Below, piece by piece: positions 2,201 to 62,906 of a stretch of 64,000 bases of DNA (the stretch's first letter is position 1; each line of letters opens with the position of its first letter). Origin of the DNA: Zanthoxylum bungeanum (Eukaryota; Streptophyta; Magnoliopsida; Sapindales; Rutaceae); the NCBI GenBank assembly GCA_019454045.1, contig SKCR01033666.1:186001-250000 (forward strand). The letters are read 5' to 3'. The position numbers were made by a program, and so were the translations under genes. Under the pieces are notes generated by a model. It was not told where the DNA came from and ran no database searches. It saw only the letters and a list, made by a program, of their open reading frames with translations.

Positions 2201-2280
2201 TGATGAGGTAAAAGGATCCACTTTTATTACTTCTATTTTAGATATCTCCATCAATATAATATATTAACTTTGCATGATAA

Positions 2281-3376: not shown

Positions 3377-4795
3377 CACCCCCAAACCTAACATTTTGCT
3401 AGTCCTCGAGCAAAAAAACAAAATAAAATATAAGAAATAATTAAAATTAAACTATGCTACTTTCGTAGGGATCACGGTTGCATTTAGCATATGCAACAAG
3501 CCTTTAAACCCCTAGGTGTCCTTAGTGGACGAGTTATAGTCTCGTGAGGACTTACAGCAACGATACCCACAAACGTTTTACAAAAGTAAAAAGATAATAA
3601 AACTAATGCACACAAAAGCAAAAAGACAAGAGAAAATAGAATAAAGAAGTTAGTGACTAATAAGGTGAAACTTCTACTCCAAGTTACTAGGTGTTTTCTT
3701 TCTTTCTAAATTACTGAATAAGTAAATTCTCCGATTATATTTACCATTCTCCATATGCACAGCCGACAAAATATTAATCAACTCATTTTTTCCACAACAG
3801 TCACAAGTGTAGTTGATAAGAGAGTAATATTTTTGTCCTAAAGTTTTATCAGAATTCACACATTTTTGCAGCAATGAAATAATTTTTCTGATTTTTCTCA
3901 TTTTTTTCTTTGATTTTTGATTTTTTTTATTTATATACAATATCTTCCATCTATGTAGCGAGTGTTGGGTCGGTGGCTCCCAAACCAGTTGGCTTTAGGG
4001 CACCAGGTGTTAAGACACCCTTACGGACTTAATTACCCAGACTTCAGATATATATATATATATATTTGCAACATCCATGATCCATGTAGCGAACTTTGGG
4101 CCAGTGACTCCCAAACCAGTTGGCTTTACGGCACTAGGTGTTAAAACACCCTTACAGACTTAATAACTCGGATCTCAGAAATTTTTTTTTACTCCATCAC
4201 TTTTTGAGATGCTTTCTCCAATTAAACTAGAGCACTAAATATTATAAATTTTTCAATTACAACTCATGTCTGTATGTTACTATGCATGTTGATAATACCT
4301 GACAACTGAGCATATGAAGATCCATTTTAGTCAGTATTATGGAGAATTCACAAATTAAATAATTCAAAATGAAATAAACAAAAATTAACTTGTTCCGAAA
4401 TAGGTTTTAGACACGTCTCAGGAGTGGAAACTCCTTACTCAGCTATCTCTTACCAATTTCACCTTTTTAGTCAAAATAAAAACACAAAAACGCAAAATAT
4501 TTTTATAATTTTTGAAAAAAAATCAATTTTTTTTTTTTATATTTTTCGAAAAATTTTGGACTAAAAATAAAAACAACACAAAAATAAAATACTACAACTA
4601 TTCCCCACCCCCAAACCTAGATGAGACATTGTCTCCAATGTCTTAAAAAGTAGAAAATGAGTTTAGAAGATAGTACCTGATTAGCTGAAATTCTACATCT
4701 AAAATGGAAATTAAAGGTTAAGATCCAAATTGCATGGGTTGCCTCCCTGCTAGCGCTAAGTTTAAAGTCGTCAGCTAGACATGACTTCCCGAACG
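3377..4795 (-). other. Athila-A non-coding 3' region with polypurine tract
   Basis: This lies between the integrase remnant and the 3' LTR. No convincing protein is visible; the short open frames are AT-rich and match nothing I know. It contains a tandem duplication (3955-4177) and a segment (about 4163-4735) that is clearly homologous to 48505-49028 in Athila-F. Near 4735 is a short element-specific sequence, TTGCCTCCCTGCTAGCGC, repeated at about 59270 in Athila-F. The stretch just before it, GGTTAAGATCC (about 4715), matches the last codons of the LOG-like ORF in Athila-F. Confidence 0.75.
3955..4177. repeat. Tandem duplication of ~95-bp segment
   Basis: Two imperfect copies, at about 3955-4052 and 4083-4177, share CCAAACCAGTTGGCTTTA, GGTGTTAA and ACACCCTTAC. 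A (TA)n run at 4050-4065 lies between them. The second copy continues into the segment shared with Athila-F. Confidence 0.8.
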
Positions 4796-5128
4796 TTAGG
4801 CTGGATCTGAAAGTGTGACACTTTCTTTTTGTCGCTCAATTGATTCTCCCCAGTAGTGCTTGACACACTTGTTTTTAACCTTGGATGTTTTATTGGAGTC
4901 GGGATCATGTAACTCAACGGCTCTATCAGGTAAAACCTTGGTGATTAGGAATGGACTTGACCACTGAGATTTTGGCTTCCATGGGAAGAGTTTCAACCTT
5001 GATTTGTTTAACAGTATCTTCTGCCCTAGTTCCAGTTGTATGCGCACTAACTTCTCATTATGTTTCTTTCTGGCCTTTTCTTTGTATAATTTGGCATTCT
5101 CAAAAGGATGAATGTGAAATTCCTCCAA
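4796..5128 (-). pseudogene. Integrase C-terminal fragment (Athila-A)
   Basis: The 110-residue frame resembles the region after the catalytic core of Ty3/Athila integrases: an ENAKLYKEKARKKHNEK helix, then a small beta-rich domain with LGQKILL, SRLKLFPWK and WSSPFLITKV, the usual order for the GPY-like end of these proteins. The listed Met is internal; the frame continues upstream for a few residues (QFHQFNELEE). The zinc-binding N-terminus and the DDE core are absent. It begins only about 30 bp after the protease frame stops, so one deletion removed RT, RNase H and most of integrase. It is not functional as integrase. Confidence 0.85.
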
Positions 5129-5155
5129 TTCATTGAACTGGTGGAACTGTTTCTC

Positions 5156-6454
5156 TTATGTTGCTTGTAGTGCAAGAATAGGCTTATTTAGTACGCAGTG
5201 CGCTTTATCTTCAGGCTCCACAGGCAATTGACATGCTTTAAGTTTGTCAGCAGAACTTTGCATTGCATTGGAGGTCTGGATGGTACTATTTATCACATCA
5301 AGTCTGAAATATTCCTCTTTCCCGTCATTCGGGAAATTCATGGCTTTAAAAACATTGAATATTACTTCTTGGTCTTGTACCCTCATGGTTAGTTCTCCTT
5401 TTTGTACATCAATAATGGTTCGCCCGGTAGCCAAGAATGGTCTCCCGAGGATGATGGGCACGTCTTCATCTTCCTCCATATCAAGGACAATAAAATCTGC
5501 TGGGAAAATAAATTTGTCAACCTTGACCAGCACATCCTCAACTACGCCTCTTGGAAATACGAGCGTTCTATCAGCAAGTTGTAGAGAGACTGAAGTTGGT
5601 ATTATTTCTCCAATCTGTAATTTCCTGAAAATAGAAAAAGGCATCAAGTTAACACTCGCACCTAGATCACACAGAGCCTTACCGAAGTCATGTTCTCCTA
5701 TGGTGCAAGGAACAGTGAAACTGTCAGGATCTTTCAACTTTGGAGGAAGTTTTCTCTGAATGATGGCGCTGCATTCTTCTGATAATGCTATTGTCTCATA
5801 ATCTCCCAATCTCCGCTTTCGTGAAAGAATGTCTTTCATAAATTTGGCATAGCTGGGCATTTGTTCCAACGCTTCTGCAAATGGAATATTGATATGCAGC
5901 TTTTTAAACACCTCCATGAAACGAGTAAACTGTTTGTCCAGTTTGTTTTTCTGAAGACGCTGAGGAAAATGTGGAGGTAGAGTGATCTGTTCTTTTTTCT
6001 TTGCTTCTTTTTCCTCCATCTGTTGCTTTGTTTCTTTTGGAACTTCATCAGCAGTTGTTTTAGCTCCAACATCTTTGTTGATTTCAGTACTGCTTTTTAA
6101 TATGATGGCATGACATTGCTCATTCCCCATGTTCCTCGGATTTGATTCAGTGTTGCTAGGAAGGTTACTCGGCGGTCTGTAACTCTGAGCATTGGCCAGT
6201 TGTCCAATTTGATTCTCCAGTGCTTTAATAGAAGCAGGTTGACTTTGAATTAATGTTGCTTGGGATTGAAACATAGCATCATATCTTGCTGCTTGAGAGT
6301 CGTGTTTTGCTTCTATCTTTTTCAAGTGGGTCAACACTTCTGTTATTCCTGATTCATTTGCCTGCTTCTGGCCTTTGTTCTGTTGTTGGAATTCGGGTGG
6401 TGGATTGTTCATTTGCCCTGAATTGTTGCTCCATGCGAAATTGGGATGATTCAT
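5156..6454 (-). CDS. Gag C-terminal region plus aspartic protease (Athila-A)
   Basis: This 432-residue frame starts in the gag linker region (NHPNFAWSNNSGQ near the start, glutamine-rich, then ALENQIGQLANAQSY at 78-92). It continues through a charged Lys/Glu segment into a retroviral-type aspartic protease. The protease shows DLGASVNLMP at 263-272, with D263 the expected catalytic Asp, and the second signature ILGRPFLATG at 335-344. The protease would cleave the gag-pol precursor in virus-like particles. The frame overlaps the preceding gag frame by 4 bp at 6451-6454 in a different phase, so gag and protease are joined by a frameshift, either mutational or sequencing. It ends shortly after VINSTIQTSNAMQ, where the pol deletion begins. 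Confidence 0.88.
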   Translation of the reverse strand: MNHPNFAWSNNSGQMNNPPPEFQQQNKGQKQANESGITEVLTHLKKIEAKHDSQAARYDAMFQSQATLIQSQPASIKALENQIGQLANAQSYRPPSNLPSNTESNPRNMGNEQCHAIILKSSTEINKDVGAKTTADEVPKETKQQMEEKEAKKKEQITLPPHFPQRLQKNKLDKQFTRFMEVFKKLHINIPFAEALEQMPSYAKFMKDILSRKRRLGDYETIALSEECSAIIQRKLPPKLKDPDSFTVPCTIGEHDFGKALCDLGASVNLMPFSIFRKLQIGEIIPTSVSLQLADRTLVFPRGVVEDVLVKVDKFIFPADFIVLDMEEDEDVPIILGRPFLATGRTIIDVQKGELTMRVQDQEVIFNVFKAMNFPNDGKEEYFRLDVINSTIQTSNAMQSSADKLKACQLPVEPEDKAHCVLNKPILALQAT

Positions 6455-7502
6455 CCACCCTGGGTTGTAGGTGTCGGAATATGGATTGTTCTCTGTCTGT
6501 TGAAATTGTTGACATGATTCACCGTCTCTTTATATTGGTTTGAAGATTCTGACTCAGGTGCTCCTCCAAATGGTGAACTTGTGGATCCATCATTAACCTT
6601 CATGTTAAGAGTTTCCAGATTTTTACAAATCTGATCCAGCTTGGCATTTACTACAGTGTTGGCTTCAATTTCATAAATTCCAGCAATTAGTTGAATCAAG
6701 CTCCTTTATGTTGGCCACAAGGAGTTGTTGTTGGCCATTTCTTCAATTAAGTCACAGGCTTGATCTTCTCCTTTTGCCATTAGCGCTCCTCCAGCAGCAG
6801 CATCAATTGTGGTTCTCATTATTCCAGAAAGTCCATTGTAAAAGGTTTGAACTTGTAGCCATCTGTAATCTCATGGTGAGGATATTTCCGAAGTAAATCT
6901 TTGAATCTTTCCCAAGCTTCACAAGGGGATTCTGAATCTTGTTGCACGAAGGATGTGATGTCATTCCTCAATTTTACAGTTCTGGCTGGTGGAAAGTACT
7001 TTGCAAGGAATTTGGTGGCTAGAGTGTTCCAAGTTGTGATGGAACCTACTGGTAACGAATGTAGCCAAGCTTTGGCTATGTCTTTCAAGGAATATGGAAA
7101 AACTCGTAGTCTCATAGCTTCTTCAGCTGATCGGTTGTAGTTGAAAGTACCGCAAACTTCCAGGAAGTTGCTAATGCGGGCATTAGGATCTTTAGTTGCA
7201 TTCCCCCCAAACTGAACTGACTGCTGAATCATCTGGATGCATGTTTTGATGTCACATGTATTTGCTGGTAAGAGAGGAAGTACAATACAGGAAATGAAGG
7301 CGTCAACCACCGGAATGGTTCTGTCTCGAATGGGAATTGGTGGTGCAACCTCCAAAGGTTCAGGTTCCATATTGATCAGTGCTTCTTGGCCTTCTCGCCT
7401 TTCCCTTCTCAACTGTCTGATGGTTCTTTCAATTTCTGGGTCAAGCGGTCGGAGTTCAAAGCTTCTGGTTCGTCTCATGTAGTTTCTGAGAACCTGAAAC
7501 AC
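6451..7502 (-). pseudogene. Gag N-terminal region (Athila-A), frameshifted
   Basis: Frames 6819-7502 (227 residues) and 6451-6699 together make the Athila gag core. The N-terminus is basic (RRTRSFELRPLDPEIERTIRQL). It is followed by the retrotransposon capsid-like region: CIQMIQQSVQFGG, the segment KAWLHSLPVGSITTW, and the stretch around FPPARTVKLRNDITSF. The frame breaks at about 6820-6700 and again at 6452. The CCHC zinc knuckle usual at the gag C-terminus is not recognisable. Athila-D gag (43540-45010) is a close relative and lacks it at the same place. Upstream of the likely start, the minus strand has a polypyrimidine run ending in TTTCAG at about 7495-7530. Confidence 0.85.
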
Positions 7503-7585
7503 AAGAAAACAAAAAAAATAAGTAAAAAGAAATTAGATACAAGTAATGTATCTAACCCCAAAACTAATAGTGAAAGATAAATAAG

Positions 7586-7603
7586 TCCCCGGCAACGGTG
7601 CCA
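7586..7603 (-). promoter_or_regulatory. Primer binding site, tRNA-Asp type (Athila-A)
   Basis: On the minus strand this reads TGGCACCGTTGCCGGGGA, complementary to the 3' end of plant tRNA-Asp apart from one changed base relative to the sites at 39791 and 60688. It lies 6 bp inside the 5' LTR. It primes minus-strand DNA synthesis and fixes the element's orientation. Confidence 0.9.
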
Positions 7604-7609
7604 AAAACT

Positions 7610-9581
7610 TGACTGGTGCGTAATCACACGCGTATAACGTAAGCGCACGTATCGTTCAAGTAGTATAAAAAGTATTGATCTCACGAAGACTTAATACCTA
7701 ATCTATTAATTCTATGAGGTCAAATCATTACTAGTATCTAACAGGTTGATTGATTGATTTGAAATGGTGATGATTTTAAATTTAAAATAAGTAAATAAAA
7801 TTGCACGAAAGTAGGTTTAAGAAAATTCAATATTAGGAAACTATCTAGGGTTGTGAATCTTTCTAATATCTTTTAAAAGATGAATCAGTTATTTCATGTT
7901 TGTGTAATAAATCGGTTACTAACCTGGAACACTAAATTATACGAAAGCCTCTGTTGATGGTCAGATGCAAATACCCAGTATAACTCAATTGAACCATATG
8001 TTTATGTCAACCAAATTACCTGGATTCATTAAGTTTAAGTTCCAATTATGGCTACCCCCGCCCGACAGGTATAGGTCTATCCTGTAAGGAAATCTATTAA
8101 AGGGTTATCTATCCTCAAGGAAGATCGTGGGCTATTAAGTCTAAGACTGAAACCTAAAATTCTTTTGTCAAGTTTATTTTAGATTTACCCGATCAATCTT
8201 ATTAGTGGCCAATTAACAAGACGCACTAAGCTTAAGACTTAATAAGTAAACCTTTAAATTACCTAAACTATAAAATAACCCCTTATAAACCGGTGATATT
8301 AGAATTCATCACCACTCCAGATAACTAACTTAGTTACGACACATAACTAGGGCTAGTAAAAACTTAAGTAAAATAAAAGACATAAAGTAAAATACTGAAA
8401 AGTAAATGACGGAAGGTAAATGCTGAAATTAAATACTGAAAATTAAATGCTGAAAAGTAAATGCTGAAAGTAAATTACTGAAAAGTAAATGCTGAAAGTA
8501 AATTGCTGAAAAGTAATTGCTGAAAGTAAATTGCTAAAAAGTAAATAAAGTAAAAGTACAATAAAAGAAAATGCTGAGGTAAAAGGATCCACTTTTATTA
8601 CTTCTATTTTAGATATCTCCCTCAATATAATATATTAACTTTGCATGATAATTACCGACCAGTCATATAGGCGGTATCCAGTTTAGTCAGGTTAATCTAA
8701 ATATTAGTAATAAAAGTCTTACCTTTTACCCCAGCAAAGGGGAGTTACCTCCTCATTACTGAAAAGTAAAAACTGAAAATTAAAGAAAGAAAAGTACTGT
8801 GCGTAAAAGTAAATGGCGGAAAATAAAAACTGAAAAGTAAAGAAAAGAAAGTGCGAAAGCGGAAATTAATTACTGAAAGCTATAAATAAACAAACAAGAT
8901 ACAATCTTCTTAGTATTCTTAAGGAATTCCTTAGAAGAAAGTATGAATTTACAAATGAAATGGCTTCGTATTTATAGGCAAAATTTTGCCTCCATCAAAT
9001 CATCCACCAAATCCATTATTAATTGCTCCACTAATTGCTCCACTAATTGCTCCACCAAATCCATTATTAATTGCTCTACTAATTGCTTATCATTTTTGGT
9101 GGTGATTTGATAATATTTATTAATTTATTTTTTTGCTTTGAAAATGACTTTAATAATTACATACAACACACTTCTGGATGGTTCATCAATTTCAGGCATG
9201 AAATTTTTAGAATTCGAAATTATTTTGTCTTTCAAAGTTGTAGATCTTTAAGTCTTCTTTAATTTGGAACTTGAATAAGCTCAATCTGATATCGGAGTAA
9301 AATCTTATGCCCAAAATACGACATATGCGCAAAATTGGAATTTCCAAAACTGCACTTCGTTAAAACACCCTTTCAAGTTTCCAATCTCCAAAATTAATAT
9401 GTCAAGTCCAATATTTGCCCTTATTTGACCCACATTTCATCCTAAATGATTTCATTGTGTCCCAATATTATTTTATCTGCAAAATAAGCTAAAACACATC
9501 AAAACGTTCATCAAACCCGAGAAATTAAACAAAATATTAAGTAAAAGGGGCGGTAAATATTGATATATTTTCCGCTCATCA
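7610..9581 (-). repeat. Athila-A 5' LTR
   Basis: Bounded by TGACTGGTGCG on the left and CCGCTCATCA on the right (plus strand), about 1972 bp. It is followed at 9582 by ATATG, the target duplication also found at 1220-1224. It carries the GCTGAAAGTAAAT minisatellite and a single copy of the 60-bp segment that is triplicated in its partner. It should contain the promoter, but I cannot pinpoint a TATA box with confidence. Confidence 0.92.
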
Positions 9582-39790: not shown

Positions 39791-39808
39791 TGGCGCCGTT
39801 GCCGGGAA
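39791..39808 (+). promoter_or_regulatory. Primer binding site, tRNA-Asp type (Athila-D)
   Basis: TGGCGCCGTTGCCGGGAA, matching the 3' end of plant tRNA-Asp except for the last position(s). It is 6 bp from the LTR end. Only 7 bp further on is the CACTA insertion. Confidence 0.9.
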
Positions 39809-48504: not shown

Positions 48505-49028
48505 AATAACTCGGATCTCAGACGTTTTTTTTTATTCCATCACTTTTTGAGATGCTTCCTCCAATTAAACTATAGCACTGAATATTACAAACTTTTCAAT
48601 TTTAGCTCATGTCCGTATGTTACTATGTATGTTGATAATATCTGCTAACTGAGCATATGAATATCCATTTTAGTCAGTTTTATGGAGAATTCACAAATTA
48701 AATAATTTAAAATGAAATAAACAAAAATTAACTTGTTCCGAAATAGGTTTGAGATACGTCTCAAGAGTGGAAACTCCTTACTCAGCTATCTCTTACCAAT
48801 TTCACCTTTTTAGTCAAAATAAAAACACAAAAACACAAAATATTTTTGTAATTTTTGAAAAAATTTCAATTTTTTTTTTGTATTTTTCGAAAAAAATTTG
48901 GAATAAAAAAAAAAAAAACAACACACAAACTAAAAACAAGGTTCTGATCAACTAATTTCCTCCCCTAAATGAGACATTGTCCCCAATGTCTTAAACAGTA
49001 GAAGAAGAGTTTAGAAGATAATACATGG
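48505..49028 (-). other. Athila-F 3' non-coding region (distal part)
   Basis: About 520 bp, clearly homologous to Athila-A 4163-4690 (shared CTCGGATCTCAG, TGAGATGCTT, ACGTCTCA and ACTCAGCTATCTCTTACC), with no credible frame. The left edge is the deletion junction with copia-E; the right edge is the CATGG target of the solo LTR. Confidence 0.85.
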
Positions 49029-49217
49029 TGATAAGTGTGGTTTATACCCACTTATTACGGTATTTTTAGCTTATTGTTTTGTTATATTTCGAGATATTTA
49101 AATGTTATTTATAGGTTATTTCATGTTTTATTTGTAGGAGCATTAATACATGGATCCTGGAATATTTACAAGTATCTTGGGAACTTTTGGGAAGACAGAA
49201 CGAGTACAGGAGCATAA

Positions 49218-49440
49218 GGCACCATGGCGCCACCATCCTATACAATTTCCAGAGGGATGGGTGCCATGGCGCCCATCAATTATAAGTAAGTGGCTTACCT
49301 AAAGTAAATGGCGCCTTGGCGCCCACATTTACCAAAGGTACCATGGCGCCTAACCAACCAAATACAAGGGCGCCATGGCGCCCCCCAAGTTGCACGCACC
49401 CATACAAATTTCCCGAGACTTCGGCGCCGTGGCGCTGCGG
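49218..49440. repeat. CCATGGCGCC-rich block in the solo LTR
   Basis: Eight GGCGCC words by my count within about 220 bp, most inside CCATGGCGCC, with AT-rich DNA on both sides. Irregularly spaced, so it is a word cluster more than a tandem array. Confidence 0.85.
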
Positions 49441-50238
49441 GTGCAATATATCAGACACGCTTCAGGATTTAATTATTAGGGTTTGTAAGATCCCTAATGC
49501 TACCCAAAGACTCCCAGCCTCCAGTATAAATATAACAGTTCGTCCAGAATTAAAGAGGAGGCTAATACACTGCACAAAACATAGAAACAAATATTTTTAG
49601 AGATCCAAGGAGAGGATTGAAGAGCGAAAATAGGAGATTAAGGCGGTGACATCCGAGGAAGAAGAGATTCAATTCGGGTTTTATCTTCTAATTTCTTTCT
49701 TAGAACTCTAATGATTTCCATTAGATTCATGACTTGTTTATTATTGTTTTTATCTTTTGTCATGAACTAAACTCCTTAATTCTGGAGAATGATGTAATCG
49801 ATGCTTGAACCTTGTATTTTGTTTATCAATTTTGTTATGAAGTTTTACTAATTTATTTATATTCTTTTGAGTTTAATGCTTCTTGATTGTTGGCCACAAT
49901 TGAAGATGATGAATGTTTAGAATCTATCACTCGAGAGAGGGGATTTTGAATAGATCTAGAGAATATGACCTAGGATTTTATATAGTTCAAGAGAATTTGT
50001 AGTCCTTTGAAGTCGTTAATATAGAATCACAAATCGTAATGAGTTGTTAACTATTGGATTTTTATAGAGATATCGAAGTCTATAGTTGATGATATTTTCA
50101 CTCAGCACTCGAGAGAGGGAGTGAATATTTTAGGAGTCTTGACTTATAAACAATATAACTGAACATGGATTAATTGGCATGACAAATCCATAGGCGACAG
50201 CTAGGTGAAATCAGGATCCAGAATCTCTATCGTATTAG

Positions 50239-52282
50239 TGTGATACCTTATATAAAAAAAAAAAAAAAAATTGATAAGATAGCAGTGGGGCTAAAAAAAA
50301 ATGTGTTTGGCTATAAAAAAAAACGTGTGGGGGATGAATGATTTCATTTTCAATTTCTGTCTCTCTCTACTAATTTTTATTTCTTCTTTCTTCTCTCACT
50401 CTCTCTCACTGCCAACTTCAAACCGCCTCCGCCGCTTCACCGCCGGCCATCAGCCACCACGCGCCGGACTGCCAGAAAGCTGCCGCCAGAAAGCTTTCCA
50501 TAGCCGCTGAGATCGAGCTTATCCGCTGCCGGACGCTCCTCCACGCGTCGCTTGAAGGGAGCGACTCGCCGCCGGTTCTTCTGCAATTTCCGGCCACCTC
50601 CGATCACTTCTGACGTCACCTCCGGCGAGTGGGCACTTTTCAGGCCGATATCTTTCCAACGCCGGTGGTCACCTTCTGATCCGACATCGTTTGGGTTGTT
50701 TTCCGTTTTATATCTACCGGTAATTCAGGATTTGTACTAGAAGTTGAGATCCGACCGTTGGATCGGCGATCCGATCGCATCAGATTGTTGCTCTCGATTA
50801 TACGAGCATTTTGGTATATTTTTTCACCGTTGAAAGTTTCTGGTGGTGGGGCCCGCTTTTTAGTTGTGGGGCCCGATCTTCGTTATGGGGCCCGCTTGCC
50901 TCGTTAAGCGTATCAGCAAATTCTGAAGCCGTCGCTGTGATTCTTGAGATATTGGCTGACTAGTGGATCTTTCTTTGAGAGATTTGGAGATCGTTGGAGC
51001 TCGGTATGTAATTATTACCGTTTTGGGGTGTAAATGATAGAATTGGAAAGTTTTGGATATAATTGTAAATTTGCATAATTAAGAGGGTAAAATTATAAAT
51101 TCTGCTAATTAGGGATTAAATAGTAGTATTTAAGAATTTTAGTACTATTTGGGCAATCGGAAAAGTTTAGGGGTAAAATCGTAATTTTGGATAAATTGAG
51201 GGACCTGATCGTAATTTTACATTTTTCAGATTCTTGGCGAGGATATAGATTTATTCAGAGCTTTTGCATGGATAGAGGTAAGTACACTCTGTGGTGATTC
51301 TCTTAACATATTGTTTGATGTTTGATGATTGTTGTGAGAGTCGGTATATATAAATATAATGGTATATATTATATATATATTTATATTATATATATATATA
51401 TATTGTGGAGATATAATATTGAGATATTGAAAGCATGATAATATGAAATCATGATTGTTGAGATGAGTTTGATTAGATTGGATGCGAGATGTGATTGTAT
51501 TGGATGATGTGTGTTGTTGTGATATGCTGCCGGGTTTGGTATAATAGTGGTCGGATTTGAGATGAGATGTGATGATAAATCAGATGAGATGAGATGTGAT
51601 GATACATCAGATGAGATGATATGGGGGAGTACGGGGGCTTCCTCATTGAGTACATTTTACTCACATTTTACGAGTTGATATGGTTGGAAACCTTGGAAGT
51701 TGTCATTGAGGACTTTCCATTGGTTTTGATATGGGGGAGTACGGGGGCTTCCTCATTGAGTATATTTCAATCCTCTGTTATACTAGACCCGGAGTAGCAG
51801 CCATGATTGATGGATGTTTGTACTGTTGAGGTGGGATGTTTGTTGTAATGATATTATAATATATGTTATTTTCATATATTATATATATATATATATCTAC
51901 ATATTATATAATCCATATTTTGTTGGTGAGGTCATGTTGAGAATGAGTGTTTACTTGCTGAGCTTTTTAAGCTCATTCCCCTCTTCCCCCAAACATTTCA
52001 GGTAGTTCGCGAGAATAGCAGGAGCAGTACCAGATTGGGATCCACGTGCCACAGTTGTATTTTCTTGGGTTGGTCCAGACATTCGAGTCGTCATTTGCAT
52101 TTTTTTTTTAAAAGTCTTGTGTTGTAAACCATAAAGGTGGTGTATACTTTATGAGTTTGTAATTTGTGATGTATTATTTGTGTGTTTTAAATTGGTTGAT
52201 TTGGCATATAGAGTGCTCGAGCTGAAGTTGATCGCGGACCTCTTTCTAGGGTTGGGCCCGCCCTAGGGAGGGGGTCGTGACA
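50239..52282 (+). repeat. Chromovirus H 5' LTR
   Basis: TGTGATACCTTATAT followed by poly-A, GC-rich CGCCGCC-type sequence at 50420-50660, several GGGGCCCGC words near 50850-50890, (TA)n runs near 51370-51400, and the end GGGTCGTGACA. Short frames in the GC-rich part are repeated in the 3' LTR and are not genes. Confidence 0.94.
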
Positions 52283-52286
52283 GATT

Positions 52287-52298
52287 TGGTATCAGAGC
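52287..52298 (+). promoter_or_regulatory. Primer binding site, initiator Met tRNA (chromovirus H)
   Basis: TGGTATCAGAGC, four bases after the LTR end, complementary to the 3' end of plant initiator tRNA-Met. Confidence 0.95.
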
Positions 52299-52373
52299 TT
52301 AGGGTTTTAGGTTCTGTAGACATGTTGCATTAGATGAGAGTATTAAAAGGGTAGTTTTGTGTCTTTAGAAAAA

Positions 52374-52700
52374 ATGTCTGGACGTGGCCGTGGTACTGGT
52401 ACTCAACGTGGGAGAGGGATAGTTTGACGATACCCGAGAATGACGTGTAATAGTGTAGAGAGACCTCACACTCAGCCGATAAATTTTGAATTTGTTATAA
52501 CTTATTTGGTGTTCATCCGATTGTTGAGGATAACAAGGAGTTTAGATTTATACCATCAGTAGTTTTGACAATTGCCCTTTTTGCTATTTCCGTAGTTGTA
52601 TCTGACGTGATTTCTACAGTGGTACCTAATGTGAATTTGTTGCTGTCGTAGTTATAACATCGTCGTGAGTGAGTAAGTCGAAGACATTAGAATTTTGGTG
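52374..52700 (+). pseudogene. Gag N-terminal remnant (chromovirus H)
   Basis: ATG at 52374 opens a short Arg/Gly-rich start, MSGRGRGTGTQRGRGI, as in chromovirus gag proteins, and meets a stop within about 20 codons. Following sequence to about 52700 is decayed and I cannot follow the capsid domain. Confidence 0.6.
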
Positions 52701-52797
52701 TTTGAGAAAGAAGGAATAAGAGTTTATTGACACTTTTGTTTAAGCAAACAAATGCCATAATACCAAGCAGTACCAAAATATAAGATTTATGATTACA

Positions 52798-53902
52798 TTA
52801 TGGAATATAACAACTTGGTTGTGTTGCAAGGACAGGATCATCTTCGAATTGATAACCTTCCCATTGGCGTTTCGCACGTAGAGACATTGGAATGAGGCCG
52901 TCGATGACTTGGATTTCGAGACTGTCGGGAAACTTGATTTTATTGTAACCTTGGACGATACTTCTAGATGACTCTTCGATAGTAGTGAAGATTTGCCAGT
53001 CTTTATCATTGGTATTACTTTCTAGGCTTCGACGGACTGAGTCTGCGGAGAGAGCTCTAAGATCACAGGATTGACGAAAGGTAATATCTGCTGGGAAAAT
53101 ATCATCGTATCCATAGTAAGCTCTAAGCTTCGGTCTAGATGGCCAACTACTGAGTCTCCAATTAGTGAGTTGATGTGATGGTATGATTCTTATAGATGAA
53201 TTGGGTGATAAACGAGCGAATAGTCATCTGACCATTCTGGAGTAATGGTTTCAATCCAGACAGTAATACTTTTATGTCGTTTATACCATCGATGTAAAAT
53301 ATTACTGATGAAGGAGGAAGCTCACTTAGGCTGGCTTCTGAGATACCAGGATAGTTGGGATGGATTGGACTTGGTCCAAGAATAAATCCATTTAGGAAAC
53401 CAAGTTCAAACAAGGTGCCGAGACTCAATTGGCAATGATTGAAGAAATCATGGCTGTTGATGAAAACTGTGGAATGGAATCTGTGATATCCACAATGAAC
53501 AATCGCAGAATTATTTTTGTATTGGATTAAACCATCTGTTTTTCCATTCCAAATGGTTCTAAGAATGAAACACCATCTCAAGAAGTTTGTAGGAACTCTT
53601 GCCACGATATCCATTGCAATCTCCTTGGGCAGAAGAGCGGATGGAGCTTCATTGAGACAATCGTGGATGTCTCTCCAAAGGTCTCGAACATATTTAGAGT
53701 CTATAATTGCACGATCAGTGACTGGCCATTTACAAAGCTTTTGGTATATCACCTTAGCTCTAGCAGATTTTGAACAGGGATTAGGATTGGTAGAGGAGGA
53801 TGCCATGAAAGAAATTTGAGTAATTCCATAAGAACTTATGCATTTCTTTATAGGGGTGATAGCAATAATTTCTTCGTGAAAAGACGTTTTCACAGTATCC
53901 AT
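52798..53902 (-). CDS. Unidentified antisense ORF inside chromovirus H, one frameshift
   Basis: Frame 53162-53902 (246 codons) and a second frame ending at 52798 read as one protein with a single frameshift near 53190. The likely start is the Met at 53806 (MASSSTNPNPCSKSARAKVI), giving about 335 residues; the upstream Met at 53902 adds 32 residues. The protein has balanced composition, rich in Trp, Tyr, Phe, His and Cys, with segments such as YVRDLWRDIHDCLNEAPSAL, FINSHDFFNHCQLSLGTLFE and PPSSVIFYIDGINDIKVLL, and later YYGYDDIFPADITF. It has no signal peptide or membrane segment. I do not recognise the family. It is opposite to gag-pol, in an element whose own pol is ruined, yet it is far less decayed. 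It may be a captured gene, an antisense accessory ORF, or a remnant of another mobile element. Confidence 0.55.
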
Positions 53903-54400
53903 GCATAATTGGAAGGGATAATAATTGTCGTGATGATTAGATGTAAAGCAGATGTATGAGGGACATGCAAATCCTCTTTTCGATAGTGGGAATCTTAAGG
54001 TGGTGGATTTTGCGAAAATGCTAAAAACTCTTTACAGTTGTTGTCTGAGCGGGACCCTTAGGTGGAGCCTTTTCCTTTGGAGACAAGATAGTTGGTTCGT
54101 AAGTTATAGCACAGGTTAGAATAATGATAATAATTGAGGGCATTATTCATATGATGGTGAGTGTGAGATGTATAATGATCGATAGAGTTGAAATATGTTT
54201 CCAATCAGAAATATCTGAATTTTGGTGATAGATACGTTGGATGGAGTTTCTAAGTAACTGTGGTTGTACTACTGATTAGTATTCAGAAAAGATTAATGAA
54301 GTTACTGATACACTGAGTGGGAAGAATGTGAGATAATTTTTGAGCGGAGAGAGAATGTTCGAGGAGATGACATTGGTATGTTTGACTTTTGGATTGTTCA
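53903..54400 (+). other. Chromovirus H interior, decayed pol or unknown
   Basis: About 500 bp with no convincing frame on either strand. By position it lies between the antisense ORF and the integrase remnant, where RT and RNase H would be expected. I cannot find RT motifs. Confidence 0.45.
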
Positions 54401-54579
54401 ATAGTAGGAGTATTCTTGACTATATGAAGGTTTGACCCACACCGTTAGATAGAATTACTATAGCACAAGGCGGTTTGACCAATATGGAAATTAGGGAGCC
54501 GAGATTGTGAGGAATGGGGACTACTACTTTCAGATTGAGTTCATAGAATGTATAATTATTAATGATAAAGTCGTGATAC

Positions 54580-55600
54580 CATATAATAGAAAGCTCAAGT
54601 GGGAGATCTTGGACGAGACATACGATAATCATTATTATATGAAATTTGAGAGCACTAAGATGTATCAAATCTAAAGAAGACTTAATGGTGGTTGGGAATG
54701 AAGAGATAGATTTAAGTGTTTATATCTCGGTGTTTAGTTTGTCAGTGGGATAAAAGAGAGCATCGATATCCAGCTGGATTATTCCAGTCTTCACCTAGAC
54801 CTGAGTGGCCATGGAAAATATCGTGATGGATTTTGTGGTATGGTTGTCAAAGACGCGGTATGGTTATGATGCAATTTGTGTAGCATGGAATCGATTGTAT
54901 AGGTCTGCTCACTTTTTAGCGATTCGAGTGACGTGTGGACCAGATAGACTAGTGATATTTAGTTGTGGAGCAGATTGTACGATTACATAGTGTACCCTTA
55001 TCGATTGTATCGGATAGAGTTCTCGGTTTTACTTCTCATTTTCGGGAGAGTTTCTAGAAGACTATCGGATCAAAGATTTATACGAGCACCTCATTCCATC
55101 CTCAAACAGACGGTCAGTCAGAGCGGACTATTCAGATGTTAGAAGATTTGTTGAGGGTGTGTGTTGTGACATAAATGGGAGTTGGGAGTGAACATTTGTA
55201 TTTGATCGAGTTTGCCTATAACTATAGCTTTTTGACTAGAATCGACATGACTTCATTTAAGGCTTTACGAGAGAGGCGATTTAGGACTTTTGTTTATTGG
55301 AGTGAGATTGGAGACAGACAGATTCATGGCTCAGACTTGGTAGATTGATGACTAATAAGATCAGGTTGATCCGAGTGAGACTGTTGGTTGAGTAGAACGA
55401 TAGAAGAGTTTGGTAAACAGTAGGGGGTATGACCTTGAGTTCCAAGTTGGAGATATAGTATTTTGAAAGTTTTCTTATTAGAAGGGAGGATTGAGTTTTG
55501 TCTGGAAGAGAAAGTTTTCGCCGAGCTGTATTGGTTCTTTTGAAATTTTGGAGAAAGTGTGAAAAGTGGCATATCATCTAGCATTATTACCGTGATTAGA
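54580..55600 (+). pseudogene. Integrase remnant (chromovirus H)
   Basis: Out-of-frame pieces in the right order. A zinc-finger region reads as ILDETHD, YYMKFESTKMYQ and PEWPWKIS near 54600-54810. The core start is ENIVMDFVVWLSKTRYGYDA and RSAHFLAIRVT (frame 54805-54990). The later core is STSFHPQTDGQSERTIQMLE near 55080-55140. The C-terminal GPF-like part KFSPSCIGSFEILEKV is near 55515-55560. Stops and shifts are frequent. This matches the chromovirus integrase layout. Confidence 0.85.
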
Positions 55601-55734
55601 AAGGATTCATTTAGTGTTTTGCGTATTCGTTCTAAAGAAGATGGTACTAGACCATTCTCCGATTCTAGAGAGTCAACCGAAGGAGCCGAGCGGGAACTTG
55701 ATTTATAAGGAAAGCGTGTGAAGATCGTAGATTG

Positions 55735-55867
55735 GAAGGTTCAAGAGTTGAGATCCAGATGTATTTCTCTTGTAAAGGTTTTGTGGACTAATCATCACAT
55801 TCAGGATGCGACTTGGGAAGTGGAACATGATTTGAAGGAGAAATATCCAGAACCATTTGAGGATTGA
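55735..55867 (+). pseudogene. Chromodomain (chromovirus H pol C-terminus)
   Basis: An open frame ending TGA at 55865-55867 reads SLVKVLWTNHHIQDATWEVE then HDLKEKYPEPFED, the core of a retrotransposon chromodomain with its conserved aromatic positions (VLW, ATWE). In chromoviruses this domain sits at the integrase C-terminus and directs insertion toward particular chromatin. It is the best-preserved coding piece of this element's own pol. Confidence 0.82.
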
Positions 55868-55905
55868 GAAATTTCGGGGACGAAATTTTTGTAAGGTGGG
55901 TAGAT

Positions 55906-57942
55906 TGTGATACCTTATATAAAAAAAAAAAATTGATAAGATAGCAGTGGGGCTAAAAAAAAATGTGTTTGGCTATAAAAAAAAACGTGTGGGGGATGAA
56001 TGATTTCATTTTCAATTTCTTTCTCTCTCTCCTAATTTTTATTTCTTCTTTCTTCTCTCACTCTCTCTCACTGCCAACTTCAAACCGCCTCCGCCGCTTC
56101 ACCGCCGGCCATCAGCCACCACGCGCCGGACCGCCAGAAAGCTGCCGCCGTCAGCTTTCCATAGCCGCCGAGATCGAGCCGATCCGCTGCCGGACGCTCC
56201 TCCACGCGCCGCTTGAAGGGAGCGACTCGCCGCCGGTTCTTCTGCAATTTCCGGCCACCTCCGATCACTTCTGACGTCACCTCCGGCGAGTGGGCACTTT
56301 TCAGGCCGAGATCTTTCCAACGCCGGTGGTCACTTCCCGATCCGACATCGTTTGGGTTGTTTTCCGTTTTATATCTACCGGTAATTCGGGATTTGTACTG
56401 GAAGTTGAGATCCGACCGTTGGATCGGCGATCCGAACGCATCAGATTGTTGCTCTCGATTATACGAGCGTTTTGGTATATTTTTTCACCGTTGAAAGTTT
56501 CTGGTGGTGGGGCCCGCTTTTTAGTTGTGGGGCCCGATCTTCGTTGTGGGGCCCGCTTGCCTCGTTAAGCGTATCAGCAAATTCTGAAGCCGTCGCTGTG
56601 ATTCTTGAGATATTGGCTGACTAGTGGATCTTTCTTTGAGAGATTTGGAGATCGTTGGAGCTCGGTATGTAATTATTACCGTTTTGGGGTGTAAATGATA
56701 GATTGAAAGTTTTGGATATAATTGTAAATTGCATAATTAAGAGGGTAAAATTATAAATTCTGCTAATTAGGGATTAAATAGTAGTATTTAAGAATTTTAG
56801 TACTATTTGGGCATATCGGAAAAGTTTAGGGGTAAAATCGTAATTTTGGATAAATTGAGGGACCTGATCGTAATTTTACATTTTTCAGATTCTTGGCGAG
56901 GATATAGATTTATTCAGAGCTTTTGCATGGATAGAGGTAAGTACACTCTGTGGTGATTCTCTTAACATAATTGTTTGATGTTTGATGATTGTTGTGAGAG
57001 TTGGTATATATAAATATAATGGTATATTATATATATATTTATATTATATATATATATTGTGGAGATATAATATTGAGATATTGAAAGCATGATAATATGA
57101 AATCATGATTGTTGAGATGAGTTTGATTGGATTGGATGCGAGATGTGATTGTATTGGATGATGTGTGTTGTTGTGATATGCTGCCGGGTTTGGTATAATA
57201 GTGGTCGGATTTGAGATGAGATGTGATGATACATCAGATGAGATGAGATGTGATGATACATCAGATGAGATGATATGGGGGAGTACGGGGGCTTCCTCAT
57301 TGAGTACATTTTACTCACATTTTACGAGTTGATATGGTTGGAAACCTTGGAAGTTGTCATTGAGGACTTTTCCATTGGTTTTGATATGGGGGAGTACGGG
57401 GGCTTCCTTATTGAGTATATTTCAATCCTCTGTTATACTAGACCCGGAGTAGCAGCCATGATTGATGGATGTTTGTACTGTTGAGGTGGGATGTTTGTTG
57501 TAATGATATTATAATATATGCTATTTTCATATATTATATTATATATATATATCTACATATTTATATAATCCATATTTTGTTGGTGAGGTCATGTTGAGAG
57601 AATGAGTGTTTACTTGCTGAGCTTTTTAAGCTCATTCCCCCTCTTCCCCCAAACATTTCAGGTAGTTCGCGAGAATAGCAGGAGCAGTACCAGATTGGGA
57701 TCCACGTGCCACAGTTGTATTTTCGGGTTGGTCCAGACATTCGAGTCGTCATTTGCATTTTTTTTTTTAAAAAGTCTTGTGTTGTAAACCATAAAGGTGG
57801 TGTATACTTTATGAGTTTGTAATTTGTGATGTATTATTTGTGTGTTTTAAATTGGTTGATTTGGCATATAGAGTGCTGGAGCTGAAGTTGATCGCGGACC
57901 TCTTTCTAGGGTTGGGCCCGCCCTAGGGAGGGGGTCGTGACA
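55906..57942 (+). repeat. Chromovirus H 3' LTR
   Basis: Pairs with 50239-52282 at very high identity by eye, with differences mostly in short indels and (TA)n length. It ends GTCGTGACA and is followed by the ATTAG duplication. Confidence 0.94.
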
Positions 57943-58170
57943 ATTAGTTCCTCATATTTTATTGTTTTTATATTTTATTTATTTATTAAAATCTTTATTA
58001 ATTATTTTCTAAATAAAGTTAGGATTATCAATTGTAGTACTTAGTGCGAGTTAACGCAATCCATGTGGGTTCGACACTCTAAACTCATTTATACTAAAAC
58101 TTGACACCGTACACTTGCGATACAATATAAAAATATCACAACACCTGGTTAATTGAAATTTTACAGGAAA

Positions 58171-58824
58171 TTAAAGGTTAAGATCCAGATTAATCCGACG
58201 CATCTTACCACGATCATCGTCGGACCAATTTATCTTTGAAAGGATATGGTCAATTTGTGGTTCATAGGCTAAGATTTGGTCAATTAGATCCATAGCAGTT
58301 CTGGCAGTATAGAGGAGTTCTTTTAAAGGTTTTGACACGAACCCATTTCTCTGAGCATCATCAAGAAACACACAAAGAAAATCATAAAATCCATCAATGT
58401 TAAACAACCCAATTGGTTTCTGGTGTATGTCCAGGTTCGCCCAAGATAGCACTATAAAAATTTCCTCCAATGTGCCCAAGCCACCTGGCAAAGCAATAAA
58501 AGCATCAGCATGGTTAATCATTTCTACCAATCGTTCAGACATACCTGGCACAATAAGTTCCTCTCTGTTTGATGGTTCAATAAGATTTGCCTCAGCCAAG
58601 GGTTTTGGGATGATTCCCAAAAGGTGACTGCATCCTTCCTGTATGGCCTTTGAAACGATCCCCATTAGTCCAAGATTGCCTTCGCCATATATTAAGTGCA
58701 TATTCCTTGCAGCTAAGACTCGACCCAATTCATGTGCTGCTTCTACGTATTGTGACTTAGTACCAACACTAGTACCGCAAAACACACAGATGTTTTCAAC
58801 TCGTCTTCTTGAAGTAGCTTCCAT
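58171..58824 (-). CDS. LOG-like cytokinin riboside 5'-monophosphate phosphoribohydrolase, intronless copy inside Athila-F
   Basis: The complete 217-codon frame matches the length of plant LONELY GUY enzymes, which release free cytokinin from cytokinin nucleotide. Visible features: N-terminal ICVFCGTSVG (12-21); nucleotide-binding LIYGEGNLGLMG (44-55), where the family usually has GGG, so G48 to E is a notable change; R98 in MSERLVEM; and PGGLGTLEE (113-121) with E121. R98 and E121 are the residues reported as catalytic in the family. The tail is INLDLNL. Host LOG genes have several introns and this has none, so it arose through an RNA copy. It lies between the element's spacer and its 3' non-coding region, on the element's sense strand. 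There are no stops, so it may be recent or under constraint. Activity is uncertain because of the GEG change. Confidence 0.87.
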   Translation of the reverse strand: MEATSRRRVENICVFCGTSVGTKSQYVEAAHELGRVLAARNMHLIYGEGNLGLMGIVSKAIQEGCSHLLGIIPKPLAEANLIEPSNREELIVPGMSERLVEMINHADAFIALPGGLGTLEEIFIVLSWANLDIHQKPIGLFNIDGFYDFLCVFLDDAQRNGFVSKPLKELLYTARTAMDLIDQILAYEPQIDHILSKINWSDDDRGKMRRINLDLNL

Positions 58825-59760
58825 GTTTTACTCTGGATGTCTTCAAAAGTGCAATGATCAGTTGAATTTATAACACTTGAAAAGGGTGAGTAATAATAGC
58901 ACTAGTATCTTCCAAAGGACGATAGTTAGCTAAACAATAAAAGAAATTGTGAACGGTCAAAAAGTCTGGATTCTGTCTACAAAAATAAAGATAATTACAA
59001 CAGAAAAGCAAATCAAAGCAATAATTAAGGCAACAGAATTGTGTACGTAATACGCCATTCGCTTAGTATAAATTCATTAGGATACGTCTCAAGAATCCAT
59101 TCCTTACTCAGCCATCGCTAATGAATTATCTCTTATTTTTGCCAAATACCATTCCTTCTGTCATATGCTTTGGTTGAGATTTTCCCTATAAAAATAGCAC
59201 ACAAAATTAAAAACTCTACAACATGTATACATAAAATATAAAAATATAAATTACAACAAAGTGCATGGGTTGCCTCCCTGCTAGCGCTAAATTTTTCGTC
59301 TTCAGCTAGACGTGACTGAAATCTATCCGTCAATGAGGTTTCAACGTCGTTTTGGACGTCCGATTAAAGACAATCTCGTGTGCGTTACTTTTGAAGGGTC
59401 TCTTCCAACGGTAAATGGGTAAAAAGACTTTTGTCCCACTCAGTGCTTGTGCTACCTTTTTAACCTTTGTTGCTCCAGTGGTTCCTGAAAAGAAAGAAAG
59501 AAAATCAAGAGGTCTTGTATGGTGCTTGACTTGGAATATGAGTTCCATTCTGTCAAGCTTCTGGGTGATATCTTTGATTTCTACTCCCCAAAACAGTGAT
59601 GTTTAGCCTGAATGCATTGGATTCTCAATAAGTTCAGACATTTGCTCTGCTTCTTGCTTTACCTTTTCTTCACAGATGTATTTTAAAATTTCCGTATTCA
59701 ATTCTTCATCCGTCATCTGTGAAATGCATGCTCCATAAGTATCAATCTGAGGATGTAAAG
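58825..59760 (-). other. Athila-F spacer upstream of the LOG-like ORF
   Basis: No recognised protein. It contains TTGCCTCCCTGCTAGCGC at about 59270, shared with Athila-A, and a segment near 59075-59130 (ACGTCTCAAGA, then CTTACTCAGCCATC) that is a diverged copy of the element's own 3' non-coding region (48752-48800). The LOG-like ORF is thus flanked on both sides by related element sequence. A 72-codon minus-strand frame at 59330-59548 sits where Athila-A has its integrase tail but does not resemble it. Confidence 0.6.
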
Positions 59761-60144
59761 TTATGTTGTTTTTAGGTCTTCATCCTCTGATCTGAGTGAA
59801 ATGATTGGCTCAGGTAGATCTTCTTCAAACATTTGTGCAATGGAAGCTCCAAGATCTTCATTTGGAGGAAAGAAAGTTTCATTCTCCTTTGTTGGTGTAG
59901 TTGGTACAAATAGCTTAGCTTCTTTATCCTCGTCAGAGTCAGAATAATAAAAATCAAATTGAGACTTTGTTGGTTCAGGCTCCTGAACTGATACCTCTGA
60001 TTCTTGATACTGCTTAGCCTCGTCCTCTGTTATGATGTCATGATGAATCTCAGGATAATCGAAGGCTTCTTCAGTATTATTTGAATTTGCTCCGTGAGAT
60101 ATGTGATTCAGGTTATCTGTTAATTGTCTAACTTGATCTGTCAT
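59761..60144 (-). CDS. Acidic gag-linker ORF (Athila-F)
   Basis: 127 codons, strongly acidic, starting MTDQVRQLTDNLNHISHG. This start corresponds to the ALENQIGQLANAQSY linker of Athila-A gag. It then runs through Glu/Asp-rich sequence (YYSDSDEDKEAKLF) with no known domain. It is separated from the frame at 60148-60453 by one stop codon, so the two were probably one gag-derived protein. Function unknown. Confidence 0.6.
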   Translation of the reverse strand: MTDQVRQLTDNLNHISHGANSNNTEEAFDYPEIHHDIITEDEAKQYQESEVSVQEPEPTKSQFDFYYSDSDEDKEAKLFVPTTPTKENETFFPPNEDLGASIAQMFEEDLPEPIISLRSEDEDLKTT

Positions 60145-60687: not shown

Positions 60688-60705
60688 TCCCCGGCAACGG
60701 CGCCA
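60688..60705 (-). promoter_or_regulatory. Primer binding site, tRNA-Asp type (Athila-F)
   Basis: Minus strand TGGCGCCGTTGCCGGGGA, a full match to the 3' end of plant tRNA-Asp, 6 bp from the 5' LTR. Confidence 0.93.
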
Positions 60706-60711
60706 AAAACT

Positions 60712-62906
60712 TGACCAGCGTAAACACACACGTATAATGCAAGCGCACGTATCGTTCAAGTAGTATAAAAATATCGATCCCACGAGGTCTTAATTCCTAC
60801 TATTGTTATTAATTGTTGAATCTATTTATTTACAAATATCTAATTAAATGGAGAAGAGAATGATTGTTTGATTGGTTGAATGTGGTTTTCCTTAATTAAA
60901 ATAAATAAATAAAAAAGAAAATACTAAGGAAAATAACAAAAGACTCAAAGATCTAGGGTTGTGAATCTTTCTAATATCTTTTAAAAGATGAAGTGATTAT
61001 TTTATGTTTGTGTAATAAATTGGTTTACTACCTTGGAACACGAAATTATGCGAAAGCCTCTGTCGATGGTCAGACGTAAATACCCAGTTTAACCCAATTG
61101 AACCATATGTCTATGTCAACCAAATTACCTGGATTCATTAAGTTTAAGTTCCAATTATGGCTACCCCCGCCCGACAGGTATATGTCTATCCTGTAAGGAA
61201 ATCTATTAAAGGGTTATCTATCCTCAAGGAAGATCGTGGGCTATTAAGTCTAAGGCTGAAACCTAAAATTCTTTTGTCAAGTTTATTTTAGATTTTACCA
61301 CATCAATCTTATTAGTGATCAGACAACAATAAGCATTAAGCTTAAGACTAAATAAGTAAACCTTTAAATTACCCAAACTATAAAATAACCCCTTATAAAC
61401 CGGTGATATTGGATTTCATCACAACCCCAGATAACTGGCTTAGTTACAGCACATATTTACGGGTAGTAAAAACTTAAATAAAATAAAAGACATAAAGTAA
61501 AATGCTGAAAAGTAAATGACGGAAAGTAAATGCTGAAATTAAATACTGAAAATTAAATGCTGAAAAGTAAATGCTGAAAGTAAATTACTGAAAAGTAAAT
61601 GCTGAAAGTAAATTGCTGAAAGTAAATTGCTGAAAAGTAAATGCTGAAAGTAAATTGCTGAAAAGTAAATGACGGAAAGTAAATGCTGAAGTAAATTGCT
61701 GAAAGTAAATTGCTGAAAAGTAAATTGCTGAAAAGTAAATAAAGTAAAAGTACAATAAAAGAAAATGCTGAGGTAAAAAGATCCACTTTTATTACTTCTA
61801 TTTTAGATATCTCCCTTAATATAATATATTAACTTTGCATGATAATTACCAACCAGCCATATAGGCGGTATCCAGATTAAGTCAAGTTAATAATTAATTA
61901 CCAACCGACCAATCAGGCGGTATCCAGTTTAGTCAGGTTAAAACCAATTTAAATAATTACCAACCGATCAATATGGCGGTATCCTCGTTAAGTCAGGTTT
62001 TAACTAGTTTATATATTATAATTAAGGGAGATTAATCTAATATTAGTAATAAAAGTTTTACCTTTTACCCCAGCAAAGGGGAGTTACCTCCTCATTACTG
62101 AAAAGTAAAAACTGAAAATTAAAGAAAGAAAAGTATTGTGCGTAAAAGTAAATTGCGGAAAGTAAAAACTGAAAAGTAAAGAAAATAAAGTGCAAAAGCG
62201 GAAATTAATTACTGAAAGCTGTAAATAAACAAATAAGATACAATCTTCTTAGTATTCTTAAGGAATTCCTTAGAAGAAAGTATGAATTTACAAATGAAAT
62301 GGCTTGGTATTTATAGGCAAAATTTTGCCTCCATCAAATCATCCACCAAATCCATTATTAATTGCTCCATTAATTGCTCCACTAAATCCATTATTAATTG
62401 CTCCACTAATTTCTTATCATGTTTGGTGGTGATTTGATAATTTTTATTATTTATTTTTTGCTTTGAAAATGACTTTAATAATTACACACAACACACTTCT
62501 GGATGGTTCATCCATTTCGGGCATGAAATATTCAGAATTAGAAATTATTTTGTATTTCAAAGTTGTAGATCTTTGAGTCTTCTTTAATCTGGAACTTGAA
62601 TCAGCTCAATCCGATATCGGAGTAAAAATTTATGCCCAAAATAATACATATACGCAAAACTGGAATTTCCAAAACTGCACTTCGTTGAAACGCCCTTTCA
62701 AGTTTCCAATCTCCAAAATTAATATGTCAAGTCCAATTTTTGCCCTTATTTGACCCACATTTCTTCCTAAATGATTTCATTGTGTCCCAATATTATTTTA
62801 TCTGCAAAATAAACTAAAACACATCAAAACGTTCATCAAACCCGAGAAACTAAACAAAATATTAAGTAAAATGGGCAGTAAATATTGATATATTTTCCGC
62901 TCATCA
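60712..62906 (-). repeat. Athila-F 5' LTR
   Basis: Begins TGACCAGCGTAAAC and ends CCGCTCATCA. About 2195 bp, close to the Athila-A LTRs, with a longer GCTGAAAGTAAAT minisatellite (61489-61760) and all three copies of the 60-bp segment (61845-62010). It is followed by Athila-D pol sequence at 62907. Confidence 0.9.
61489..61760. repeat. Expanded minisatellite in Athila-F LTR
   Basis: Roughly twenty head-to-tail units of GCTGAAAGTAAATT or GCTGAAAAGTAAAT type, more than in either Athila-A LTR. Confidence 0.85.

What the first reader, a model, noticed from the sequence alone, without database searches (positions are those of the whole stretch)
58171..58824. Full-length intronless LOG-like cytokinin-activating enzyme carried by an Athila-type retrotransposon
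An uninterrupted 217-codon LOG-like frame lies inside Athila-F on its sense strand, with element sequence on both sides. R98 and the PGGxGTxxE motif are kept. Host LOG genes have introns, so this is a cDNA-derived capture. An LTR element spreading a hormone-activating enzyme would be an unusual route to new LOG copies. The lack of stops in a region full of ruined genes argues for recency or constraint.
Basis: partly seen in the sequence, partly recalled or inferred. Interest (0 to 1): 0.9.

Follow-up and report, generated by a model that had tools for sequence, protein, structure and literature searches.

The report
Cytokinin-enzyme gene riding a jumping element
A plant jumping element with many copies carries its own intron-free version of the LOG gene, which likely activates the growth hormone cytokinin; in the copies checked it sits at the same place and selection keeps it while the element moves, so this mobile DNA may steer its host's hormones to its own advantage.

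Summary
The 217-codon LOG-like frame at 58824-58171 (minus strand) is real and is element cargo: all 47 other copies examined share the element sequence on both sides, and 45 of 47 have the 3' LTR start a median 1,327 bp after the LOG stop. Two complete relatives have LTR pairs and 5-bp target duplications. The element lacks room for a polymerase and is likely a non-autonomous Athila type. Host LOG genes in the same genome are intron-split and 41-52% identical by the measures used, so the capture is old. Between two subfamilies picked by DNA alone net dN/dS is 0.25; the window copy itself looks neutral, is split by nested insertions and has an altered glycine loop. LOG in Ty3/gypsy elements is not new: PMC9289625 reports the domain in Citrus and Populus. 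What looks new is the copy number, the fixed place, the measured constraint, a basic plus LxLxL (EAR-like) tail in 74 of 95 relatives and 0 of 120 canonical LOGs, and, in the long form, a second gene matching a plant RNA-virus nucleic-acid-binding family. New variant of a known kind.

The parts
58171..58824 (-). LOG-like ORF, 217 codons (cargo gene)
58825..59006 (-). leader before LOG, shared by all 47 other copies examined; TATAAATT in 47 of 48 and TTTTCA[AG]G in 46 of 48 copies (function untested)
59761..60144 (-). piece of the broken gag-like region (127-aa ORF, no Pfam match); a zinc-knuckle-like CDICNGNHPRDHC motif lies just upstream (read by eye)
60688..60705 (-). primer binding site TGGCGCCGTTGCCGGGGA, exact
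60712..62906 (-). 5' LTR (TGATGAG...GGTCA)
48505..49029 (-). continuation of the LOG element downstream of LOG, beyond the nested insertion; broken off at 48505
49030..58139 (.). nested insertion that splits the LOG element 31 bp after the LOG frame
50239..57942 (.). younger LTR element inside that insertion (LTRs 50239-52282 and 55906-57942, K2P 0.012; target duplication ATTAG)
1225..9581 (-). LOG-less relative with LTRs 1225-3376 and about 7610-9581 and gag; keeps 22 nt of a LOG 3' end with its stop at 4706-4727, so LOG was deleted

Best explanation
This is an intronless LOG gene carried, at the same place in the copies checked, between the gag side and the 3' LTR of a high-copy LTR retrotransposon without polymerase (likely of the Athila type); purifying selection acts on it between element subfamilies, likely because it makes active cytokinin in cells where the element is expressed. 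Shown: gene identity, fold, fixed place, LTRs, PBS, target duplications, only 1.9 kb between PBS and LOG, constraint between subfamilies, near-neutral change in the window copy. Inferred: an old cDNA capture of a plant LOG; movement by enzymes supplied by an autonomous relative; expression from a separate RNA (spliced, or from the TATA-like box before LOG); catalytic activity of open copies. Proposed benefit (untested): free cytokinin keeps the expressing cell dividing or meristematic, so that new insertions more often reach the germ line. The window copy is a decaying one and need not be active.
For: LOG identity and fold. Same flanks in 47 of 47 copies, 3' LTR in 45 of 47. LTR pairs in L055, L056, L057 and target duplications GGTAT (L056), ATGAA (L057). 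Host LOGs intron-split in 6 of 6 loci looked at. Net dN/dS 0.25 between two DNA-picked subfamilies, bootstrap over copies 0.22-0.28; fixed-like differences at codon position 3 in 21 of 39 against 103 of 300 singletons, p 0.021. Slope of dN on dS 0.16 +- 0.04 over 38 copies. R98 and PGGxGTxxE kept.
Against: No transcript, enzyme assay or cytokinin measurement. The window copy's glycine loop is altered. A relative lost LOG and still has two LTRs, so LOG is not strictly needed to be moved. Within the window's own subfamily the codon-position test is not significant (p 0.40), and dN/dS in the lowest-divergence bin is 0.41, not near 1. The family-level result uses copies that align without gaps.
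Confidence: 0.5

Rival explanations
1. The cargo LOG has become a nuclear regulator: the fold is kept, but the C-terminal basic cluster plus LxLxL tail (EAR-like, by recall) likely recruits host corepressors for the element, and hormone release is secondary.
For: Tail in 74 of 95 full-length cargo-type proteins and 0 of 120 canonical LOGs; tail kept in most copies; predicted to be unstructured.
Against: Catalytic motifs are kept as well; nuclear location and corepressor binding untested; 21 of 95 lack the exact pattern, some ending in the basic cluster alone.
Confidence: 0.2
2. The constraint comes from the host: a few element-borne LOGs were domesticated as host genes, and the sampled copies descend from them or are kept for host benefit.
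For: LOG controls cytokinin in plants (recalled; cited in PMC9289625); relatives are annotated as host genes in Populus.
Against: All 47 copies examined still sit in element sequence; open frames are a minority (12 of 29; 6 of 19); window copy looks neutral.
Confidence: 0.15
3. LOG is a neutral passenger, and the low dN/dS between subfamilies is left over from its time as a host gene.
For: Neutral-like change in the window copy; LOG lost in a relative.
Against: Net dN/dS 0.25 between subfamilies that both sit in elements; neutral passengers would give about 1 on those branches.
Confidence: 0.1
4. It is a nearby host retrogene, with the element beside it by chance.
For: Intronless frame.
Against: 47 of 47 copies share element flanks; LOG lies between the LTRs of complete elements with target duplications.
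Confidence: 0.02

Closest known systems
YgdH/LOG domain in Ty3/gypsy consensus elements of Citrus sinensis, C. clementina and Populus trichocarpa (PMC9289625, section 12 read; it cites Steinbauerova et al. 2011, which is not held and was not seen)
   Same: LOG-family domain inside plant Ty3/gypsy elements.
   Different: The section does not give lineage, position, selection or tail; here the place, flanks, constraint, tail and a companion gene are described in another genome.
Canonical plant LOG genes (Arabidopsis LOG3, 2a33; LOG8, 1ydh)
   Same: Fold and catalytic motifs.
   Different: Host copies are intron-split, 41-43% identical over the alignment, and lack the LxLxL tail.
Additional ORFs of plant LTR retrotransposons between pol and 3' LTR (PMC7264820, passages)
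   Same: Sense ORF in the 3' part of the element.
   Different: Decarboxylase, lysine and cytokinin do not occur in that text; here the ORF is a recognisable enzyme.
ALKBH-type demethylase acquired by orchid Ty3/gypsy elements (PMC9289625)
   Same: Enzyme gained by a plant Ty3/gypsy lineage and spread in many copies.
   Different: Different enzyme; there function was tested, here it is inferred.

Membership tests
Type-I LOG (cytokinin riboside 5'-monophosphate phosphoribohydrolase) | LOG fold and sequence family | tested here: met
Type-I LOG (cytokinin riboside 5'-monophosphate phosphoribohydrolase) | R98 and PGGxGTxxE motif (named by recall) | tested here: met
   window copy and most of 38 copies; glycine loop altered in the window copy
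Type-I LOG (cytokinin riboside 5'-monophosphate phosphoribohydrolase) | release of free cytokinin base from the ribotide | not testable with these tools
   needs an enzyme assay
Non-autonomous LTR retrotransposon | LTR pair and target site duplication | tested here: met
   L055-L057 LTR pairs 94.6, 96.2, 96.9%; duplications in L056 and L057, none made out in L055; the window copy has only its 5' LTR
Non-autonomous LTR retrotransposon | no polymerase of its own | tested here: met
   1.9 kb between PBS and LOG, one ORF of 120 aa or more there, without Pfam match; L055-L057 align to the window across this stretch. For long-form copies only selected ORFs were scanned
Athila lineage of Ty3/gypsy | place in a reverse transcriptase/integrase tree | not tested
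   no such domain in the element; an autonomous partner was not sought
Athila lineage of Ty3/gypsy | PBS and gag of the type expected | tested here: inconclusive
   PBS complementary to tRNA-Asp by recall; PMC6317226 passages list tRNA-Asp among several used by non-chromoviruses; gag PF03732 in the LOG-less relative

The most novel reading that the evidence does not exclude
An LTR retrotransposon lineage evolved a virus-like accessory kit: a nuclear, corepressor-recruiting cytokinin enzyme (LOG with a basic plus EAR-like tail) and, in its long form, a plant-RNA-virus-type nucleic-acid-binding protein that blocks silencing, so that the element both escapes RNA silencing and pushes its host cell to keep dividing.
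Probability: 0.18. Interest if true: 0.9.

Novelty: new variant of a known kind. Interest (0 to 1): 0.62.

Why it matters
Plant LTR elements rarely keep host genes. Here a hormone-activating enzyme family member is held by selection while the element moves, long enough to fall to about half identity with host LOGs, and it is present in many copies. That makes a concrete question testable: does a retrotransposon gain by altering its host's cytokinin state? It also warns that LOG gene counts in plant annotations may include element-borne copies, and the virus-type companion gene points to an accessory-gene class in these elements that deserves its own study.

Tried and rejected
Nearby host retrogene: rejected. 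Recent capture of a host LOG: rejected by distance and tree. Open frame of the window copy as a sign of constraint: rejected. Binning dN/dS by dS inflates the ratio in the lowest bin and was replaced. A neutral simulation of open frames gave 4-43% open for 1-4% change, but its indel rate was my guess, so I rest nothing on it. Leader conservation near LOG (0.90-0.95 identity in 20-base blocks from column 260 on) is hardly above LOG third positions (0.896), so it is no proof of a promoter or splice site. Species: matK was asked for and not answered; not pursued. An autonomous partner element was not sought. Literature: six searches touching LOG in retrotransposons; I opened PMC9289625, PMC7264820, PMC11963269 and PMC6317226 and of these only PMC9289625 reports it; the other listed papers were not opened. 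For the virus-type gene: (listings) and passages of PMC2714080 and PMC3136472 showed no report of it in retrotransposons. The library lacks most subscription journals.

Full report

Anatomy. Reading the minus strand: 5' LTR 62906 to 60712, PBS 60705-60688 (exact), a broken gag-like stretch (ORF 60144-59761; zinc-knuckle-like motif by eye), a leader, LOG, and 31 bp later an insertion. The inserted 9.1 kb holds a younger LTR element 50239-57942 with target duplication ATTAG and LTR divergence K2P 0.012. The LOG element resumes at 49029 and breaks off at 48505. I found no 3' LTR of this copy in the window. Between PBS and LOG there are only about 1.9 kb with one ORF of 120 aa or more, without Pfam match.

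It is cargo. I took the flanks of 47 other LOG copies from the same genome: L001-L008 picked by Pfam profile, L010-L038 by DNA, L044-L053 by a canonical LOG protein. All 47 have the element sequence just upstream and the post-LOG region downstream; 45 have the 3' LTR start after LOG, at a median 1,327 bp, range 1,062-1,391. L005 and L006 look like one locus held twice, so the 47 may not all be separate insertions. Three copies with both LTRs, L055, L056 and L057, have LTR identities of 94.6, 96.2 and 96.9% (K2P 0.036, 0.030, 0.028). The flanks printed show target duplications GGTAT (L056) and ATGAA (L057), read by eye; none could be made out for L055. At a recalled rate of 1.3e-8 per site and year this is 1.1-1.4 million years, at 5e-9 2.8-3.6.

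Two forms. Seven of the 47 (L004, L005, L006, L008, L044, L048, L053) carry another ORF just before LOG; the 10-kb stretches L039 and L043 also have it, after gag-like and protease-like pieces (protease matches below Pfam's cut-off) and an integrase-end-like piece seen by eye. The window copy and its near relatives lack it. A relative without LOG sits at 1225-9581 of the window and keeps 22 nt of a LOG 3' end with the stop at 4706-4727: it lost LOG by deletion, so LOG is not strictly needed for a copy to be moved.

Host LOG genes. With a canonical 72-residue C-terminal query, 27 places match at 63-90% identity, 25 of them ending at query residue 50-57; the capped list then falls to cargo-type LOGs at 39-44% over nearly the whole query. 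In all six loci fetched (L058-L063, which include likely duplicates) a canonical LOG3 matches in separate pieces: host LOGs are intron-split. With a canonical 200-aa query all 150 scored places are uninterrupted LOGs of 49-52% identity, 5 of them with one stop.

Age and kinship. In a tree of 54 proteins, 16 canonical LOGs form one clade (100/100). The cargo LOGs of this genome group with unnamed sequences and, further out, with proteins from Populus and Reevesia; two Xanthoceras and two unnamed proteins fall on the canonical side of the midpoint. The window LOG is 41-43% identical to six canonical LOGs and 48-87% to 29 cargo-type ones. Whether the proteins of other plants are element-borne was not tested; PMC9289625 (section 12) reports the YgdH/LOG domain in Ty3/gypsy consensus elements of two Citrus species and, without its n5 filter, P. 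trichocarpa. So the kind is known, and one old capture is the simplest reading, not a proven one.

Selection. To avoid picking copies by reading frame, I compared two groups picked by DNA similarity: 22 copies (the window's and 21 of the 29 others fetched; seven with gaps and one with an end frameshift dropped) and 19 copies of another subfamily (20 of 39 listed fetched; one dropped for length). dN/dS is 0.71 and 0.37 within groups, 0.33 between, and 0.25 net between (bootstrap over copies 0.22-0.28). Fixed-like differences fall on codon position 3 in 21 of 39 cases, singletons in 103 of 300, p 0.021. Over 38 copies from all searches the slope of dN on dS is 0.16 +- 0.04, and shared variants are richer in position 3 (71 of 145) than singletons (42 of 166), p 2e-5; part of that set was picked by protein score, which favours low dN. 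Against this: within the window's subfamily alone the test is not significant (19 of 54 against 45 of 155, p 0.40), and the lowest-divergence bin gives 0.41 (14 pairs), not 1. The window copy's private changes are 6 nonsynonymous and 2 synonymous. 12 of 29 nearest copies and 6 of 19 in the other group (one of the six lacks the final stop) are open. Reading: selection acts on the moving lineage; inserted copies mostly drift, and the window copy's open frame is unremarkable.

The tail. 74 of 95 full-length proteins among the best 120 of the cargo-type search end in a basic cluster followed by LxLxL, as here (RRINLDLNL); 0 of 120 canonical LOGs do. By recall LxLxL is the EAR motif that binds TOPLESS-type corepressors, and a basic cluster can act as a nuclear signal. 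Neither was tested.

The second accessory gene. The ORF before LOG in the long form (182-192 aa) matches Pfam Viral_NABP over its cut-off (7.1e-7 in L039, 6e-6 in L043) and Carla_C4 (over cut-off in L043 only), both plant RNA-virus nucleic-acid-binding families. A database search gives 383 relatives; the best 120 are 55-87% identical, with named ones from Populus, Xanthoceras, Acer, Rhamnella and Orobanche. 23 and 22 of 26 aligned members match Carla_C4 and Viral_NABP at E 0.01. Between four copies (six pairs, 130 codons) dN/dS is 0.27-0.37. No solved structure matched. That such viral proteins suppress silencing is recall, and the virus-to-element or element-to-virus direction is open. Searches found no report of it in retrotransposons.

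How it likely works. The element is likely transcribed from its LTR, and LOG from a separate RNA: TATAAATT (47 of 48 copies) and an acceptor-like TTTTCA[AG]G (46 of 48) lie before its ATG, though this leader is hardly better conserved than LOG third positions. Open copies would turn cytokinin ribotides into free cytokinin in the expressing cell and favour division of cells in which the element is active. Activity, expression and benefit are inferred; fixed place, structure and constraint are shown.

Verdict. The interpretation needs two changes: the capture is old, and the constraint is on the lineage, not on this copy. LOG inside Ty3/gypsy elements was known; the measured constraint, the tail and the virus-type companion make this a new variant of a known kind.

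Noticed in passing
L043:5674-6252 and L039:6975-7523 (plus), also L004, L005, L006, L008, L044, L048, L053 before LOG: A conserved 182-192 aa ORF matching Viral_NABP and Carla_C4 (plant RNA-virus nucleic-acid-binding proteins), with 383 relatives in the protein database, named ones in Populus, Xanthoceras, Acer, Rhamnella and Orobanche.
   Followed up: partly
window 38017-39808 and 43455-45477 (plus): A third member of the element family in opposite orientation: LTR from 38017, PBS 39791-39808 with one mismatch, gag-like region similar to 5527-7583.
   Followed up: no
window 61494-61740, 1999-2174, 8384-8546: A 14/28/42-bp tandem repeat (AAAGTAAATGCTGA) inside the LTRs of this element family.
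   Followed up: no
window 26963-27481: A 57-bp tandem repeat, 9.1 copies, open as a repetitive 124-aa frame (GAKPISAEERGSTSHYISL), between the LTR pair 23612-26778 / 34739-37926.
   Followed up: no
window 53162-53902 (minus): A 246-aa ORF without Pfam match inside the younger nested LTR element 50239-57942.
   Followed up: no
window 63000-63830 (plus): What looks by eye like a reverse transcriptase remnant of another element, into which the LOG element seems to have inserted (no profile search made).
   Followed up: no
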